IMG/VR virus record: IMGVR_UViG_3300046532_001017
Location: 1 to 20,007 of that record
Reading direction: 5' to 3' (one strand)
Length of the DNA stretch: 20,007 nucleotides
DNA from: a virus
Made by a program: the position numbers and the translations under genes. Each line of letters begins with the position of its first letter. Position 1 is the stretch's first letter. The notes beneath the pieces are model-generated. The model saw only the letters and a list, made by a program, of their open reading frames with translations. It did no database searches and was not told where the DNA came from. Positions 480-6,707 of this stretch are shown piece by piece.

Positions 480-500
480 CCGGCGGCTAAATGCTGCCGG
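480..500. repeat. Hairpin spanning the stop codon of the sulfotransferase-like gene
   Basis: CCGGCGGC (480-487) pairs with GCTGCCGG (493-500) through eight pairs including one G-U, with a five-base loop. It covers the TAG stop (487-489) and the last codons of the gene. It is the first of three consecutive stem-loops (480-500, 445-475, 400-434) at the end of this transcript and may protect its 3' end. Confidence 0.6.
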
Positions 501-1044
501 AATATTTCCAAAAGTTTACTTCGGCCGTCCATTCTTCCGTTTTAAAGTATGGGTGATCTATTAACGGCGTTGCGTTATTAATCAACGCCGTGTGATCAAA
601 ATCGGGCCGTATCTCAATATCATATTCAAACGCAAGTAAATCATCAATTTCGGTTGTCGTTACGATTTGGGTACCCTGTAATTCGTAACGCTGGTATAGC
701 TGTAACTGCGTTTCCTGGTGAATATAATTCTTAGGGGGATTATCTAAATACTTACTGTACGGAACATCGGCCGCTAACCCCCAGCATTCTAACCACCAGA
801 TGTAATGTTTATACAAACCGTGTTTTCTGGCGTATGGCTCCCGGATTATAAATATTACGGTGTAGCCGTCATGCTCCCAACCCTGATGAATTGCCCCGTA
901 ATGGTGATCTATCCCGCCGTCGGGGTCTGGGCCATTAACCCAGATACCGCCAATGTCAGCCTTGCATAATATCCGATGTAATGCCCCGCTTCCCGTGTGC
1001 GGTGGCGTCACGATTACAAGTTTTTCGCGTTCTAATAAAATCAT
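487..1044 (-). CDS. Sulfotransferase-like P-loop protein
   Basis: 185 residues from the ATG at 1044, chosen because GAGGAG lies seven bases before it; a TTG eighteen bases earlier would place the Shine-Dalgarno inside the gene. The N-terminal strand and loop VIVTPPHTGSGALHRIL (residues 10-26) resembles the 5'-phosphosulfate-binding motif of PAPS-dependent sulfotransferases (usual form PKxGTT/S; here the lysine is replaced by histidine). IFIIREPYARKHGLYKHY (64-81) resembles the 3'-phosphate-binding segment. H47/H48 or H52 could supply the catalytic base. The protein is shorter than cellular sulfotransferases (about 250-300 residues), so it may be a minimal or divergent form. It is the last gene before the terminator. 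The acceptor cannot be predicted: capsid, host surface glycan or a small molecule are all possible. The fold call is moderately sure; activity is unproven given the lysine change. Confidence 0.6.
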   Translation of the reverse strand: MILLEREKLVIVTPPHTGSGALHRILCKADIGGIWVNGPDPDGGIDHHYGAIHQGWEHDGYTVIFIIREPYARKHGLYKHYIWWLECWGLAADVPYSKYLDNPPKNYIHQETQLQLYQRYELQGTQIVTTTEIDDLLAFEYDIEIRPDFDHTALINNATPLIDHPYFKTEEWTAEVNFWKYSGSI

Positions 1045-1066
1045 TTTATTGCTCCTCAACAATAGA

Positions 1067-3432: not shown

Positions 3433-3687
3433 CTATTTTTTTAACAGATACAAAACCACTGACGATAGCGCGCCAATGATCGCCGTTACCGCAGTTCTAA
3501 ACGCCCATTGTGTAGAACTTTTAACGTCCTCCAATTCCGTTTCTGCAACGGACATACGAACATCCAAACCAGGTTTGCCATTGCCCCGGTGCAATTTGCA
3601 AATCGGCTGTAATTCGGTTAATACCTGCTCGACCTTAATTTCGATCCGTTGCAGGTTTTCCCGTAAATCTTTTATATCGTCAGTCAC
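3433..3687 (-). CDS. Small C-tail-anchored membrane protein, holin-accessory-like
   Basis: 84 residues from the GTG at 3687 (AAGGA upstream; the junction overlaps the previous gene by eight bases). A longer reading from 3735 would lie mostly inside the previous gene. Residues 1-30 form an amphipathic, likely coiled-coil helix (DDIKDLRENLQRIEIKVEQV). A short loop with HRGNGKPGLDVR follows, then a second helix, and a single transmembrane segment close to the end (FRTAVTAIIGALSSVVLYLL, about 63-82). The layout, coiled coil then loop then C-terminal membrane anchor, is that of XhlA-type or similar proteins in phage lysis cassettes. It follows two other small membrane proteins. A lysis role is inferred from topology and position, not from sequence identity. 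Confidence 0.6.
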   Translation of the reverse strand: MTDDIKDLRENLQRIEIKVEQVLTELQPICKLHRGNGKPGLDVRMSVAETELEDVKSSTQWAFRTAVTAIIGALSSVVLYLLKK

Positions 3688-3886
3688 TATCTGGCGTTTC
3701 CTTCTTAGCAACTGGGCGCAAACTATCGCCAACAATAAGCCCCGTAATGATTACAACCAGTTTGTTTAATAGCTCTTCGCTAACTAGCGGCTCGGATAGT
3801 TGCGCGTTCACTGTCGCAAATAAAATAGACAACACTGCCACAATAGTACGCTTGCTTTTAAACGCTGCAATAATTTCTTTGAACAT
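3680..3886 (-). CDS. Putative holin-like small membrane protein
   Basis: 68 residues from the ATG at 3886, which shares one base with the preceding TGA (TGATG); a GTG directly before it is an alternative. A basic amphipathic start (MFKEIIAAFKSKR) leads to a hydrophobic helix TIVAVLSILFATVNA (about 14-28). A second hydrophobic stretch, KLVVIITGLIVGDSL, spans about 42-56. The tail is charged (KKETPDSD). Size, two hydrophobic segments and a charged tail fit small phage holins. The two neighbours are also small membrane proteins. No endolysin gene is visible next to it. Holin is the best guess; another membrane function is possible. Confidence 0.55.
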   Translation of the reverse strand: MFKEIIAAFKSKRTIVAVLSILFATVNAQLSEPLVSEELLNKLVVIITGLIVGDSLRPVAKKETPDSD

Positions 3887-4143
3887 CACTCGCCCCCTGG
3901 TAAAAAACCTTTGATTATATTTAAGGCGCTACTGCCGGCGCCGCTGGACAAAACGAAATAGGCACCTAGCCCAATGGCGATAAGCAGTACTAGCCATTTA
4001 CGTTTTTCGGCCTTTGCTTTACTCAATTCGGCCTTGGCTAAAATTATATCAACTTTTCCGGCTTGCTTCGATTCCTTTTTAGAATCTGCCGGTACCATTT
4101 CTAACTTACCGTCAGCGTTTCTTATTCGCTTTTTGCGTCCCAT
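3886..4143 (-). CDS. Small single-span membrane protein
   Basis: 85 residues; the ATG directly follows the TAA of the PRTase-HAD gene. The first 47 residues are strongly basic and helical (starting MGRKKRIRNADGKLE, later KAELSKAKAEKRK). They are followed by one transmembrane segment WLVLLIAIGLGAYFVL (about 50-65) and a glycine-rich tail. By the positive-inside rule the basic N-terminus would be cytoplasmic. Its place ahead of the holin-like protein suggests a lysis or membrane-associated virion role. No family is recognised. Confidence 0.55.
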   Translation of the reverse strand: MGRKKRIRNADGKLEMVPADSKKESKQAGKVDIILAKAELSKAKAEKRKWLVLLIAIGLGAYFVLSSGAGSSALNIIKGFLPGGE

Positions 4144-5142
4144 TTAATAAACCTCCCCGTTTTCCGTACAAATCACCCAGGCCCCTGTTAGTTTCGCTAT
4201 TTCACTAGATTGTATTGGGCATGACTCCACAAACCAATCTAACCCCAGTTTGCTAAATTCGGCGGCCTTGTATTCACTGACTGCTTGCGGTTTCATTCTG
4301 TCCGAATTGCTGCCAGGAAACATTATCAACCGTTTGCAGCGGATCCCGTAACGCTTTAGCCATGTTTCGGTTACGGCCCTATCTCCCTCGAGTCGTCCCG
4401 TAATGATCGCGGGTAATTCTGCCCGCCTTGGTAGGTTGTACGGTTTCGCGGTTTCTAGCGGTTTAGACATTGGCATGTCATGACATAGTACGCCGTCCAT
4501 ATCAAACGCCATACGGGAAACGTAGCCGCTATTAAACAGATTCCATTGCAACAAATGCGGCAATTCTAATTCTGCGCCGTATAGATCCGGTTTAGTTTCT
4601 GCCCTGGGGTTTACATATATAGCCGCTGTTATCCCGCGGAATTCTTGCAGTCGATTAATAGCCGCGCCGGTTGCTACCGTATCATCGACAAACAAAAACC
4701 GCGACGGCTCCGGGGTTGCATTCATGCGGTCACCGTGGCCGATATTGGTTACATAACGTTTTTTGTCGATGCTATATAATGGTAAATGCAAATGGGCCGC
4801 TATTACGCTAGCGGGAATCATGCCGGATCGTGGCACCGCGCAAACGGCGTCTATCTCCGGTGGTACCTGGTCGCAAAATCTAACGGCCTGGTGTACTAGT
4901 TCTACGGTTGGAATCAACCTAGCGTTTTTAAACGCTGGCGTTGCAAACTTCTTATTTAATGTACCCTGGCGGCTCTTGCAGCCGCCGCACTGTTTAATAC
5001 CTATAGCCGATGTAAAACGCGCTACGGAATCCCCGAGGCCCTTTGATAACCCACAATTGCGGTAACTTACTTTCTTTTTCTTATGTCCGCAGTTTACGCA
5101 AACCACGCCGCCATCTGTCCGGTTTTCCCATATGCACTTCAT
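4144..5142 (-). CDS. Zinc-ribbon / phosphoribosyltransferase / HAD fusion protein
   Basis: 332 residues in three parts. Residues 1-65 hold Cys pairs C15-x2-C18 and C52-x2-C55 plus C3 and C30, probably a metal-binding domain; the segment GLSKGLGDSVARFTSAIGIK resembles a small domain I recall from phage proteins ending in a CxxCxxR-LN motif. Residues 75-205 form a type I phosphoribosyltransferase: AVPRSGMIPA (102-111) as the pyrophosphate loop and FLFVDDTVATGAA (149-161) as the PRPP-binding loop. Residues 208-332 form a HAD-type phosphatase domain: FDMDG (213-217, nucleophile D214, acid D216), ITGR (247-250), K284, and VESCPIQSSEIAKLTG near the end. The start overlaps the previous gene (ATGA). 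A role in base/nucleotide salvage or DNA base modification is plausible; the substrate cannot be told from sequence. Confidence 0.8.
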   Translation of the reverse strand: MKCIWENRTDGGVVCVNCGHKKKKVSYRNCGLSKGLGDSVARFTSAIGIKQCGGCKSRQGTLNKKFATPAFKNARLIPTVELVHQAVRFCDQVPPEIDAVCAVPRSGMIPASVIAAHLHLPLYSIDKKRYVTNIGHGDRMNATPEPSRFLFVDDTVATGAAINRLQEFRGITAAIYVNPRAETKPDLYGAELELPHLLQWNLFNSGYVSRMAFDMDGVLCHDMPMSKPLETAKPYNLPRRAELPAIITGRLEGDRAVTETWLKRYGIRCKRLIMFPGSNSDRMKPQAVSEYKAAEFSKLGLDWFVESCPIQSSEIAKLTGAWVICTENGEVY

Positions 5143-6707
5143 ATTTCCGTAGCCTCAACTGTTGCCGCTCCGCCAGAATTGCACCAATCAGAAAAGCTCG
5201 TCGATGCCGATAGGCTACCATATGTAACGGATAGCGTACCAATATCGTTTACTGCTGAGAAGCTTTCGGTGCCATCCAACAAACATATACTAGGGTTTTC
5301 TGATGGTATATATTTGAAATATAGATCATGGCATTTGGTCACGGAATTACCACGGGTAACGGGGTTTCCGTCCGCGTCTAGTACCGTTTCAAATATTCTT
5401 ACTTCCATCTCATAAATAAGATGTAGCCGCCATTCGTCACTCTCAACCGCACCTGTGAGAATAGGGTATTTGTTTAATTGTAAACCCCGCCAACCCCAAT
5501 ACTTATAAATTGTATACCCTGTCGGCTCGTCCTCTACGGTGGTGCTGCAATCGCGCGGCCCGTGGTAATCTGTAAAGACTATCCCCCATGTGCATACGTC
5601 CTTACTGGCGTCTAAGTTATCCGGCGCCGCTTCGCCCAGGTTTGTGCATAGACTGTTCCAAACATCGAAACACTGTAGCGTAAACGTTTCGTTTATAAAA
5701 TCACAATTAACGCAATCGGTCGAATCTGTAAACCCGCTTACAGTTGCGTCGAATTCACCCGTGTAAAATGCACCCGGGAAAATATCGCTGCAATTATCGC
5801 AACATTCGCTCGGAGGTGGTGCCGCTGTGCAACATTCGGGGACGTCTGACGCTAAATGGCATATTGACGTTTTATAAATTTGCTGGTGTTTGTCGTAAAT
5901 CCCATGGCCCGCCACCGTACAACCTGCATCGCCCACCTCTGACTCACTCGCAAACCGCGTGATCCAACCCAATTTACCGCCGTTAATCGGGGTAAATCTA
6001 TAGGCAGCGGTTTCGTGTGAATTTCCGATTAATCCAAGATTCAATTGCACAAGATCTTCGCCCACTGTGCGCCGCTTGACGGTTATTTCTATAAATACAT
6101 CAACCTGATTGGCACCGCCGCCCAGATTAATAGTAGCCGCGCTCGCAAACGGATCAACCAATTGGATCGTACCCGCTACGTTTTCCCATAGCCGTATTAA
6201 AAATATTCTGTCGGGGTTGCCTGGGGATGTAGTAAAATCCGGTTCATATTTTATCTCAAGCGCTAGCCAATTATCGGTGTCTTCATAATCGAAACAAAAC
6301 CATAGCGCGTTGTTTTCGTCGCCGGTGCAGGTTTCGCACTTCATAAAAGACATCAACGTATACCATTGGAATTGGTCCAGTGGATTTATAAGAATAGCGC
6401 GGTTTGCATTTTCGCCGGCGCTCTGGATACCTTTGATATATGTATCGGGTGAATATTTAAGTCCGCTTCTAGTGTCCGTTGTCGCTATACAATCACTTAG
6501 CCCCGAATTGCAAACGTCCCTTTGATATGTCCAATTTTCAACGTCATCAAATACACCAGATAAATTAAACGCCCCGCCCTGTACGGGAAACGCGCCCCCA
6601 GTTGCGTGGTCGTCTGGGAAATTTTCCGCGATAAATTCACAATATCGGGATTCGTAAACCAAGCAGCAATTACAATTGCAACCAGTAGAGAATATTGAGA
6701 TAGGCAT
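5139..6707 (-). CDS. Cysteine-rich putative tail fibre/receptor-binding protein
   Basis: 522 residues with 26 cysteines, about 5 percent. The N-terminus has a tight cluster STGCNCNCCLVY (C10, C12, C14, C15). Residues about 50-285 are beta-rich and aromatic (LWFCFDYEDTDNWLALEIKY at 135-154, IFLIRLWENVAGTIQLV at 168-184), like a concanavalin/LamG-type jelly roll. Residues 292-390 hold C-C and C-x2-C pairs (292/293, 302/303/306, 332/335) around strand-rich segments, suggesting a second small disulfide- or metal-stabilised domain. It is the last of four genes between the tape measure and the lysis-like block, where phages usually encode tail-tip or fibre proteins, so host recognition is a reasonable inference. 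I cannot name a family with confidence. Similar Cys-rich tail genes are, to my recollection, found in Planctomycetota prophages. Confidence 0.6.
   Translation of the reverse strand: MPISIFSTGCNCNCCLVYESRYCEFIAENFPDDHATGGAFPVQGGAFNLSGVFDDVENWTYQRDVCNSGLSDCIATTDTRSGLKYSPDTYIKGIQSAGENANRAILINPLDQFQWYTLMSFMKCETCTGDENNALWFCFDYEDTDNWLALEIKYEPDFTTSPGNPDRIFLIRLWENVAGTIQLVDPFASAATINLGGGANQVDVFIEITVKRRTVGEDLVQLNLGLIGNSHETAAYRFTPINGGKLGWITRFASESEVGDAGCTVAGHGIYDKHQQIYKTSICHLASDVPECCTAAPPPSECCDNCSDIFPGAFYTGEFDATVSGFTDSTDCVNCDFINETFTLQCFDVWNSLCTNLGEAAPDNLDASKDVCTWGIVFTDYHGPRDCSTTVEDEPTGYTIYKYWGWRGLQLNKYPILTGAVESDEWRLHLIYEMEVRIFETVLDADGNPVTRGNSVTKCHDLYFKYIPSENPSICLLDGTESFSAVNDIGTLSVTYGSLSASTSFSDWCNSGGAATVEATEI

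What the first reader, a model, noticed from the sequence alone, without database searches (positions are those of the whole stretch)
4144..5142. Three-part Cys-pair / PRTase / HAD protein in a tail-to-lysis position
Both catalytic halves look intact (PRPP loop VDDTVATG; HAD FDMDG, ITGR, K284), fused behind a Cys-pair domain. A PRTase and a phosphatase in one chain suggests coupled handling of a phosphoribosylated compound: base salvage, a modified nucleotide, or an NAD/PRPP-related defence or counter-defence step. Its location between tail and lysis genes is unusual for a metabolic enzyme.
Basis: partly seen in the sequence, partly recalled or inferred. Interest (0 to 1): 0.55.

Follow-up and report, generated by a model that had tools for sequence, protein, structure and literature searches.

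The report
Probable phage ribose-transfer enzyme
A gene beside the tail genes of an uncultured virus of bacteria encodes a two-step enzyme that probably attaches a ribose to a sugar chain or protein and then removes its phosphate; the idea rests on relatives that are joined to, or lie next to, sugar-attaching enzymes, and has not been tested at the bench.

Summary
Window 4144-5142, minus strand, encodes one 332-aa chain (Cys-rich head, PRTase, HAD phosphatase) between a Cys-rich tail-like gene and holin-like genes. Both active sites look intact: in 47 aligned sequences (46 cluster representatives plus the window), Arg105-Ser-Gly, Asp153-Asp154, Asp214, Asp216, Thr248 and Arg250 are invariant. 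The HAD lysine is K292, not K284 as reported.

The PRTase fold is closest to purine PRTases, but their loop Asp is absent in 47 of 47 and their Lys is kept in 4 of 47. In other phages a different Cys-rich head carries either the same PRTase-HAD pair or GT8-type glycosyltransferases, some with a GT4 or GT2. GT8 is fused to, or within three genes of, PRTase-HAD in 6 of 20 such clusters. Neighbours of relatives include sulfotransferase, pyruvyltransferase and CMP-sugar-synthetase families.

Best reading: a PRPP-dependent ribosyltransferase for a glycan or protein that dephosphorylates its own product. It would work like bacterial capsule ribofuranosyltransferases but fails three structural features of the characterised ones.

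No acceptor or activity is shown; I saw no glycosyltransferase beside the window gene; a nucleobase acceptor is not excluded.

The parts
4144..5142 (-). Whole gene, 332 aa: Cys-rich head + PRTase + HAD phosphatase
4945..5142 (-). Cys-rich head (residues 1-66), six nearly invariant Cys
4945..5052 (-). Second half of head (residues 31-66), matches phrog_32048 (2.6e-6 for the head alone); in other phages also a free-standing small protein
4531..4929 (-). PRTase domain (residues 72-204): R105-S106-G107, D153-D154, W200
4147..4527 (-). HAD phosphatase domain (residues 206-332): D214xD216, T248, R250, K292, E306-S307; small cap
5139..6707 (-). Upstream gene overlapping by 4 nt: 522-aa Cys-rich tail-like protein; a possible target (inference)
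   Evidence: no Pfam match at E<=1
3886..4143 (-). Downstream 85-aa small protein with a hydrophobic stretch; small genes follow in 6 of 7 related contigs read by eye
3680..3889 (-). Holin-like 69-aa protein (weak, phrog_9987 0.0028)
3433..3735 (-). Holin/XhlA-like 100-aa protein (phrog_689 9.7e-10)
487..1062 (-). Possible distant sulfotransferase relative; its relevance to this gene is unproven
   Evidence: for; searches give no support

Best explanation
A PRPP-dependent ribosyltransferase for a glycan or protein. Step 1: the PRTase domain binds PRPP (loops intact: shown by conservation and model) and transfers ribose-5-phosphate to an acceptor that is not a purine base (inferred). Step 2: the HAD domain of the same chain removes the 5-phosphate (fold and motifs shown; substrate inferred), leaving a ribosyl residue. 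The Cys-rich head, perhaps metal-binding, directs the enzyme to its acceptor (inferred). The acceptor is most likely a glycan or protein of the phage's own tail, perhaps the product of the gene just upstream; a host surface glycan is the alternative (both inferred).
For: (1) Catalytic residues of both domains invariant over 47 aligned sequences: 46 representatives of clusters at 70% identity plus the window. (2) Loop Asp present in 5 of 5 aligned purine PRTases and in 0 of 47 here; the Lys present in those 5 is kept in 4 of 47. (3) A second head family, scanned on its own: among all loci held, 36 non-redundant proteins carry it, 17 with PRTase-HAD only, 3 with PRTase-HAD and GT8, 12 with GT8 and no PRTase-HAD, 4 with neither. 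11 of the 12 and all 4 came from the head scan; the PRTase-HAD share is inflated because loci of the earlier PRTase-HAD scans are counted too. Pfam finds GT4 in L178 and L179, GT2 in L181 and a second GT8 in L201. GT8 DxD present in 22 of 22 distinct segments. (4) GT8 is fused C-terminally (L163) or N-terminally (L036, L199), is the next overlapping gene (L039, L150), or lies two genes upstream (L029): 6 of 20 clusters with this head. (5) Of 147 genes near PRTase-HAD: CTP_transf_3 4, Sulfotransfer_4 3, Sulfotransfer_2 3 (possibly the same proteins), PS_pyruv_trans 3, Methyltransf_24 5; of 111 genes further away on the same contigs, none of the first four families has two or more members, Methyltransf_24 has 1. 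(6) A protein matching my profile of the window's own head half carries a GT2 (PF00535 2e-13) in a Pirellulales contig that also encodes a PRTase-HAD (L207). (7) Precedent: Cj1432 joins GT4, HAD and PRPP-dependent ribosyltransferase (PMC12096443, passages); Bcs3 joins a ribitol-phosphate transferase, HAD and PRPP-dependent ribosyltransferase (PMC10299916, passages and section 9).
Against: No acceptor or activity is known. In the window and in seven related loci read by eye no glycosyltransferase stood out beside the gene; the glycan context comes from more distant members. Glycosyltransferase families themselves are not enriched near the gene: group 1 GT 2 and GT25 2 of 147 near, group 1 GT 2 of 111 far. 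Most GT8 calls are below Pfam's cut-off: of the 10 proteins, 8 match GT8 at E<=0.01 and only 2 (L195, L201) reach the cut-off. The PRTase is nearest to purine PRTases and keeps the Trp aligned with that of GpT-2 (W200, 47 of 47); orotate PRTases also match the profile (1.3e-7) and, as I recall, lack the loop Asp, so its absence does not exclude other bases. The HAD is nearest to nucleic-acid 3'-phosphatases. Heads of the window type are mostly seen alone (47 ORFs, with repeats, against 39 with PRTase-HAD, with repeats, and one with a long other part). Both Pfam tallies show 25 families only (of 47 and 60).
Confidence: 0.55

Rival explanations
1. Nucleobase-to-nucleoside enzyme: the PRTase makes a nucleotide from a base and PRPP, and the HAD domain dephosphorylates it to a nucleoside (salvage, modified nucleoside, or a nucleoside signal as proposed for Ter systems).
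For: Closest PRTases by profile and fold are XGPRT and GpT enzymes; orotate PRTases match too; W200 aligns with a Trp of GpT-2. PRTase plus HAD making a nucleoside or nucleotide derivative is proposed for Ter systems (PMC7824862, passages).
Against: Loop Asp of the purine enzymes absent in 47 of 47 and their Lys kept in 4 of 47. GT fusions, the shared head and glycan-modifying neighbours would be unexplained.
Confidence: 0.2
2. RNA or DNA end processing or ribosylation: a Pnkp-like phosphatase partnered with a PRTase acts on nucleic acid.
For: HAD domain closest to T4 Pnkp and Pnkp1; weak phrog_415 polynucleotide-kinase matches; the 17 named-phage hits are HAD parts of polynucleotide-kinase-like genes.
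Against: The chain is accounted for by head, PRTase and HAD, with no kinase or ligase domain; motif IV is E-S where I recall D-D for Pnkp.
Confidence: 0.1
3. Same chemistry, other target: PRPP-dependent ribosylation of a host surface glycan (receptor masking or seroconversion) rather than of a virion component.
For: Neighbours of relatives include pyruvyltransferase and CMP-sugar-synthetase families, which I associate with surface glycans; a candidate pentofuranose system in a Caudoviricetes phage, possibly for seroconversion, is mentioned in PMC11127046 (passage).
Against: The gene follows a tail-like gene and precedes holin-like genes in the window, and a Cys-rich gene lies directly upstream in 7 of 7 related contigs read; such a late block suits a virion target better (inference).
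Confidence: 0.12
4. Inert or structural protein with decayed active sites.
For: Tail-adjacent position; no activity known.
Against: Catalytic residues of both domains invariant or nearly so across 46 clusters.
Confidence: 0.03

Closest known systems
PRPP-dependent ribofuranosyltransferases (gPRT + PRP): Bcs3 CrpP/CriT, Cj1432, K. pneumoniae O4/O7 enzymes
   Same: PRTase-fold transfer from PRPP coupled to a HAD phosphatase that removes the 5-phosphate; can share a chain with another transferase (passages of PMC10299916, PMC12096443, PMC11231755, PMC11127046).
   Different: Here PRTase precedes HAD, the two Asp are adjacent rather than split over two loops as in CriT, the HAD lacks a large cap as in CrpP, and Cys-rich heads are present in 41 of 46 clusters.
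Purine phosphoribosyltransferases (XGPRT, GpT-1, GpT-2)
   Same: Nearest fold and sequence of the PRTase domain; PRPP loop; a Trp aligned with GpT-2.
   Different: Loop Asp never present, Lys mostly replaced, fused to a HAD and mostly to a Cys-rich head.
T4 Pnkp / Pnkp1 3'-phosphatase domain
   Same: Nearest fold of the HAD domain (Z 12.4 and 12.3); motifs I-III.
   Different: Motif IV is E-S; no kinase domain; attached to a PRTase.
Ter-system PRTase and HAD enzymes
   Same: PRTase and HAD functions used together (PMC7824862, passages).
   Different: There proposed for a nucleoside/nucleotide signal; here the genes of relatives lie with glycan-modifying families. Ter components were not searched for by name.

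Membership tests
gPRT-PRP ribofuranosyltransferase (CriT/CrpP type) | PRTase-fold domain with PRPP-binding loops | tested here: met
gPRT-PRP ribofuranosyltransferase (CriT/CrpP type) | DD function split over two loops (D680/E818 of CriT, PMC10299916 section 9) | tested here: not met
   D153-D154 adjacent in 47 of 47
gPRT-PRP ribofuranosyltransferase (CriT/CrpP type) | HAD with a large helical cap (CrpP residues 393-490, PMC10299916 passage) | tested here: not met
   33 residues between D214 and T248 in the window protein
gPRT-PRP ribofuranosyltransferase (CriT/CrpP type) | HAD before PRTase in the chain, as in Bcs3 and Cj1432 (perhaps not strict: a P. syringae lipid-phosphoribose synthase candidate has a C-terminal phosphatase, PMC11127046) | tested here: not met
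   PRTase then HAD
gPRT-PRP ribofuranosyltransferase (CriT/CrpP type) | Sequence or fold relationship to CriT/CrpP chains | tested here: inconclusive
   profile search of PDB sequences and fold rows cannot settle it
gPRT-PRP ribofuranosyltransferase (CriT/CrpP type) | Transfer of ribose-5-P from PRPP to a sugar acceptor | not testable with these tools
   needs biochemistry
Purine PRTase (XGPRT/GpT) | PRPP loop with adjacent acidic pair | tested here: met
Purine PRTase (XGPRT/GpT) | Asp in the PRPP loop (DDxxDTG; catalytic role recalled) | tested here: not met
   5 of 5 aligned PDB sequences, 0 of 47 here
Purine PRTase (XGPRT/GpT) | Lys of the KP motif (purine contact recalled) | tested here: not met
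   5 of 5 aligned PDB sequences; N178 in the window, K in 4 of 47
Purine PRTase (XGPRT/GpT) | Trp in the hood (role recalled) | tested here: met
   W200 47 of 47, aligned with the Trp of GpT-2
Pnkp 3'-phosphatase | HAD motifs I-III | tested here: met
Pnkp 3'-phosphatase | Acidic pair in motif IV (recalled) | tested here: not met
   E306 (E 45, D 1 of 46) followed by S307 (46 of 46)
Ter system nucleoside module | TerD/TerC/TelA neighbours | tested here: inconclusive
   not among the 25 of 47 neighbour families shown; not searched for by name

The most novel reading that the evidence does not exclude
A second, independently evolved class of PRPP-dependent ribosyltransferase, built from a minimal purine-PRTase-like domain and a Pnkp-like HAD phosphatase, used mostly by phages to put ribose on their own tail glycans or proteins, with interchangeable Cys-rich heads, shared with glycosyltransferases, that act as acceptor-docking tags.
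Probability: 0.4. Interest if true: 0.75.

Novelty: new variant of a known kind. Interest (0 to 1): 0.58.

Why it matters
Ribose transfer from PRPP onto glycans was assigned to bacterial enzymes only recently (the papers seen here date from 2023 to 2025). A phage family with different domains in reverse order would suggest that the chemistry arose more than once, would point to sugar decoration of virions or hosts by phages of little-known bacteria (relatives were found in planctomycete and SAR202 genomes), and would offer a compact enzyme of about 330 aa for making ribosylated molecules. The recurring Cys-rich heads could serve as a marker for finding further phage glycosylation enzymes.

Tried and rejected
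Named phages: tblastn of the window protein gave only weak HAD-domain hits (17 records, none covering 80% of the query); the L016, L043 and L034 proteins gave none, so no cultured phage or host came that way. Base salvage as the default was down-weighted, not excluded, because of the residue table. Defence or NAD role: passages of two reviews (PMC7824862, PMC9503650) describe other PRTase systems; the defence library (padloc) was not searched.

Absences: no CriT/CrpP-type chain is recognisable by name among the 53 PDB sequences at E<=1 or in the 50 rows of each fold search, and no row shown covers PRTase and HAD together in this order; none of this excludes a relationship.

Sulfotransferase at 487-1062: no useful Pfam match. 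The PDB profile search (its query included L029 and L163) listed an endoribonuclease first (0.025) and a sulfotransferase at 0.24. The AF2 model is poor (pLDDT 62) and has no fold match. A profile comparison with sulfotransferase-like phage proteins was positive (95.8%, 7.8e-9) and a control against the PRTase-HAD profile negative (0.1%); but that comparison set was picked partly by eye, and one of its members, L042, has no Pfam match at 0.05. Kept as a lead only. The two head families are not detectably related.

Host census: 5 of 294 Planctomycetota genomes, the starting genome included (in most genomes only part of the first-look candidates was scored, so this may be low); 1 of 201 in the phylum of the SAR202 genome, that one being the starting genome. 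phrog_32048 matched 2 of 199 Planctomycetota genomes. No firm host claim for the window.

Rows dropped or limits: the near/far comparison used 25 of 46 clusters and same-strand genes of 90-900 aa; both tallies show 25 families only. The 120 PRTase-HAD ORFs and the ORF counts contain repeats of the same contig. In the Cys-rich upstream count, 2 of 47 had no upstream gene held; 23 of the other 45 have at least 4 Cys in the first 110 residues against 69 of 418 background genes; the 23 include a few that are not tail-like (for example L029, L036). L057, cut short, stayed in the motif table as gaps.

Print: searches listed no paper whose title or shown abstract describes this family (one search listed 15 of 18, only the first 10); I opened passages of six papers in all, and only open-licence papers are searchable. 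The 2022 Nat Chem Biol ribofuranose paper is not held and is known to me only through citing papers and recall.

Full report
WHAT IS THERE. Window 4144-5142, minus strand, encodes a 332-aa protein. Its start overlaps by 4 nt the end of a 522-aa Cys-rich gene, and it is followed by an 85-aa small protein and holin-like genes. In seven related contigs whose genes I read by eye (L005, L009, L012, L018, L022, L025, L026) a Cys-rich gene lies directly upstream in 7 of 7 and small genes follow on the same strand in 6 of 7 (not L026). The record is a 20,007-base virus record; the window also encodes a protein that matches genes annotated as terminase large subunit.

DOMAINS. AF2 on a 43-row alignment gives pLDDT 88.3 and pTM 0.82. 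The PRTase part matches purine PRTases (5bqp Z 13.6, XGPRT entries about 13; profile E 4.6e-12 for GpT-1, about 1e-8 for E. coli XGPRT, 1.3e-7 for an orotate PRTase). Residues 206-330 match T4 Pnkp 3'-phosphatase (Z 12.4) and Pnkp1 (Z 12.3). By Pfam alone the window protein reaches no cut-off (PF00156 20.8 of 26.3 bits). Residues 1-66 form a head with six nearly invariant Cys; residues 31-66 match phrog_32048, which elsewhere is a free-standing small phage protein.

ACTIVE SITES. From 120 PRTase-HAD ORFs in the loci held (with repeats) I took 46 clusters at 70% identity and aligned their representatives with the window protein (47 rows). R105, S106, G107, D153, D154, G159, W200, D214, D216, G217, T248 and R250 are 47 of 47; T155 45 of 47; K292 46 of 46 ungapped; E306 45 of 46 (one D); S307 46 of 46. 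Both halves are thus under strong constraint. The place of the loop Asp seen in 5 of 5 aligned purine PRTases, residue 157 here, is M, Y, A, F and others, never D; the place of their Lys, residue 178 here, is N 21, H 9, K 4 of 47. The PRPP site is kept, part of the purine-recognition set is lost, and a Trp aligned with that of GpT-2 is kept. Orotate PRTases, as I recall, also lack that Asp, so this weakens only the purine reading.

RELATIVES. The direct scan of viral contigs gave 16 loci and the profile scan 60, which include those 16. The genome scan gave four: Planctomycetaceae, Pirellulales, Thalassoglobus neptunius and SAR202. Whole-genome sampling found it in 5 of 294 Planctomycetota genomes, one of them the starting genome. 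41 of 46 clusters have at least 4 Cys before the PRTase (in L036 and L199 that stretch includes a GT8 part). The heads belong to different families; the two that I compared are not detectably related.

THE KEY LINK. I scanned viral contigs with the second head family alone (64 loci). Among all loci held, 36 non-redundant proteins carry it: 17 PRTase-HAD only, 3 PRTase-HAD with GT8, 12 GT8 without PRTase-HAD (10 of these with a further long region), 4 neither. The PRTase-HAD share is inflated by loci of the earlier scans; 11 of the 12 GT8 proteins and all 4 others came from the head scan. Pfam gives group 1 GT (L178, L179), family 2 GT (L181) and a second GT8 (L201) in further regions. The GT8 assignment is weak by Pfam: 8 of the 10 proteins match at E<=0.01 and 2 reach the cut-off; but DxD is present in 22 of 22 distinct segments. 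In 6 of 20 clusters with this head, GT8 is fused to PRTase-HAD on either side or lies within three genes, in two of them as the next, overlapping gene. PRTase-HAD therefore takes the place of a glycosyltransferase module. For the window's own head type the evidence is thinner: one protein in L207, matching my profile of that head half, carries a family 2 GT (2e-13) in a contig that also encodes a PRTase-HAD; most such heads without PRTase-HAD are free-standing.

NEIGHBOURS. For 25 of the 46 clusters, 147 genes close to PRTase-HAD and 111 further away on the same contigs were scanned with Pfam. Near: Methyltransf_24 5, Radical_SAM 4, CTP_transf_3 4, Sulfotransfer_4 3, Sulfotransfer_2 3, PS_pyruv_trans 3, group 1 GT 2, GT25 2. 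Far: group 1 GT 2, Methyltransf_12 2, Methyltransf_24 1, Epimerase 1; no sulfotransferase, pyruvyltransferase or CTP_transf family with two or more members (families with one member are only partly shown). So sugar-modifying families are commoner near, but glycosyltransferase families as such are not enriched; no significance test was made, and one protein may count in two families. By eye, one marine group shows tail-fibre-like gene, small gene, PRTase-HAD, methyltransferase, sulfotransferase-like gene in a row (L042, L050, L209); the last of these in L042 has no Pfam match at 0.05. The gene directly upstream is Cys-rich in 23 of 45 cases against 69 of 418 background genes.

MECHANISM. Shown: conserved PRPP and HAD sites, fusions, context. 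Inferred: ribose-5-phosphate goes from PRPP to an acceptor hydroxyl and the HAD then removes the phosphate. Precedents: Cj1432 (GT4, HAD, PRPP-dependent ribosyltransferase; PMC12096443 passages), Bcs3 (ribitol-phosphate transferase, CrpP, CriT; PMC10299916 passages and section 9) and the K. pneumoniae O4/O7 enzymes (PMC11231755 passages). The phage protein works like these on my reading but fails three features of the characterised ones (split DD, large HAD cap, domain order), so I do not file it as a member. The acceptor is unknown; a tail protein or its glycan is my first choice because of gene position.

LIMITS. No glycosyltransferase was noticed beside the window gene. The sulfotransferase-like gene at 487-1062 is only a lead. 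The nucleobase-to-nucleoside rival is not excluded. The host of the window phage is unknown.

Noticed in passing
window 487-1062 (minus); equivalents in L005, L009, L012, L018, L022: Gene related by profile (95.8%, 7.8e-9) to a set of sulfotransferase-like phage proteins picked partly by eye; Pfam, PDB and fold searches gave no support.
   Followed up: partly
loci L074-L140, for example L083:3770-4165 and L085:3746-4183: The phrog_32048-type head occurs as a free-standing small phage protein; in L083 and L085 it lies directly behind a Cys-rich tail-like gene, the place that the head-PRTase-HAD gene takes in the window; in others it lies elsewhere, for example before terminase-like genes.
   Followed up: partly
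L182, L184, L205 and the C-terminal half of the L195 protein: An unassigned region that looks alike by eye follows the second head type in three proteins and a GT8 part in a fourth; no convincing Pfam match. Possibly another transferase.
   Followed up: no
L029:2427-3701 and 3698-4930; L189:1667-2929: Long genes with twin-arginine-like starts in viral contigs; two far-set genes, apparently the L029 pair, match DUF1501 (3.7e-111). The L189 gene was not scanned.
   Followed up: no
L042:8746-9860, L050:8770-9857, L209:10845-11956: Conserved pair downstream of PRTase-HAD: a methyltransferase (Methyltransf_24 in L042) and a gene that looks like a sulfotransferase by eye (no Pfam match at 0.05 in L042).
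   Followed up: partly
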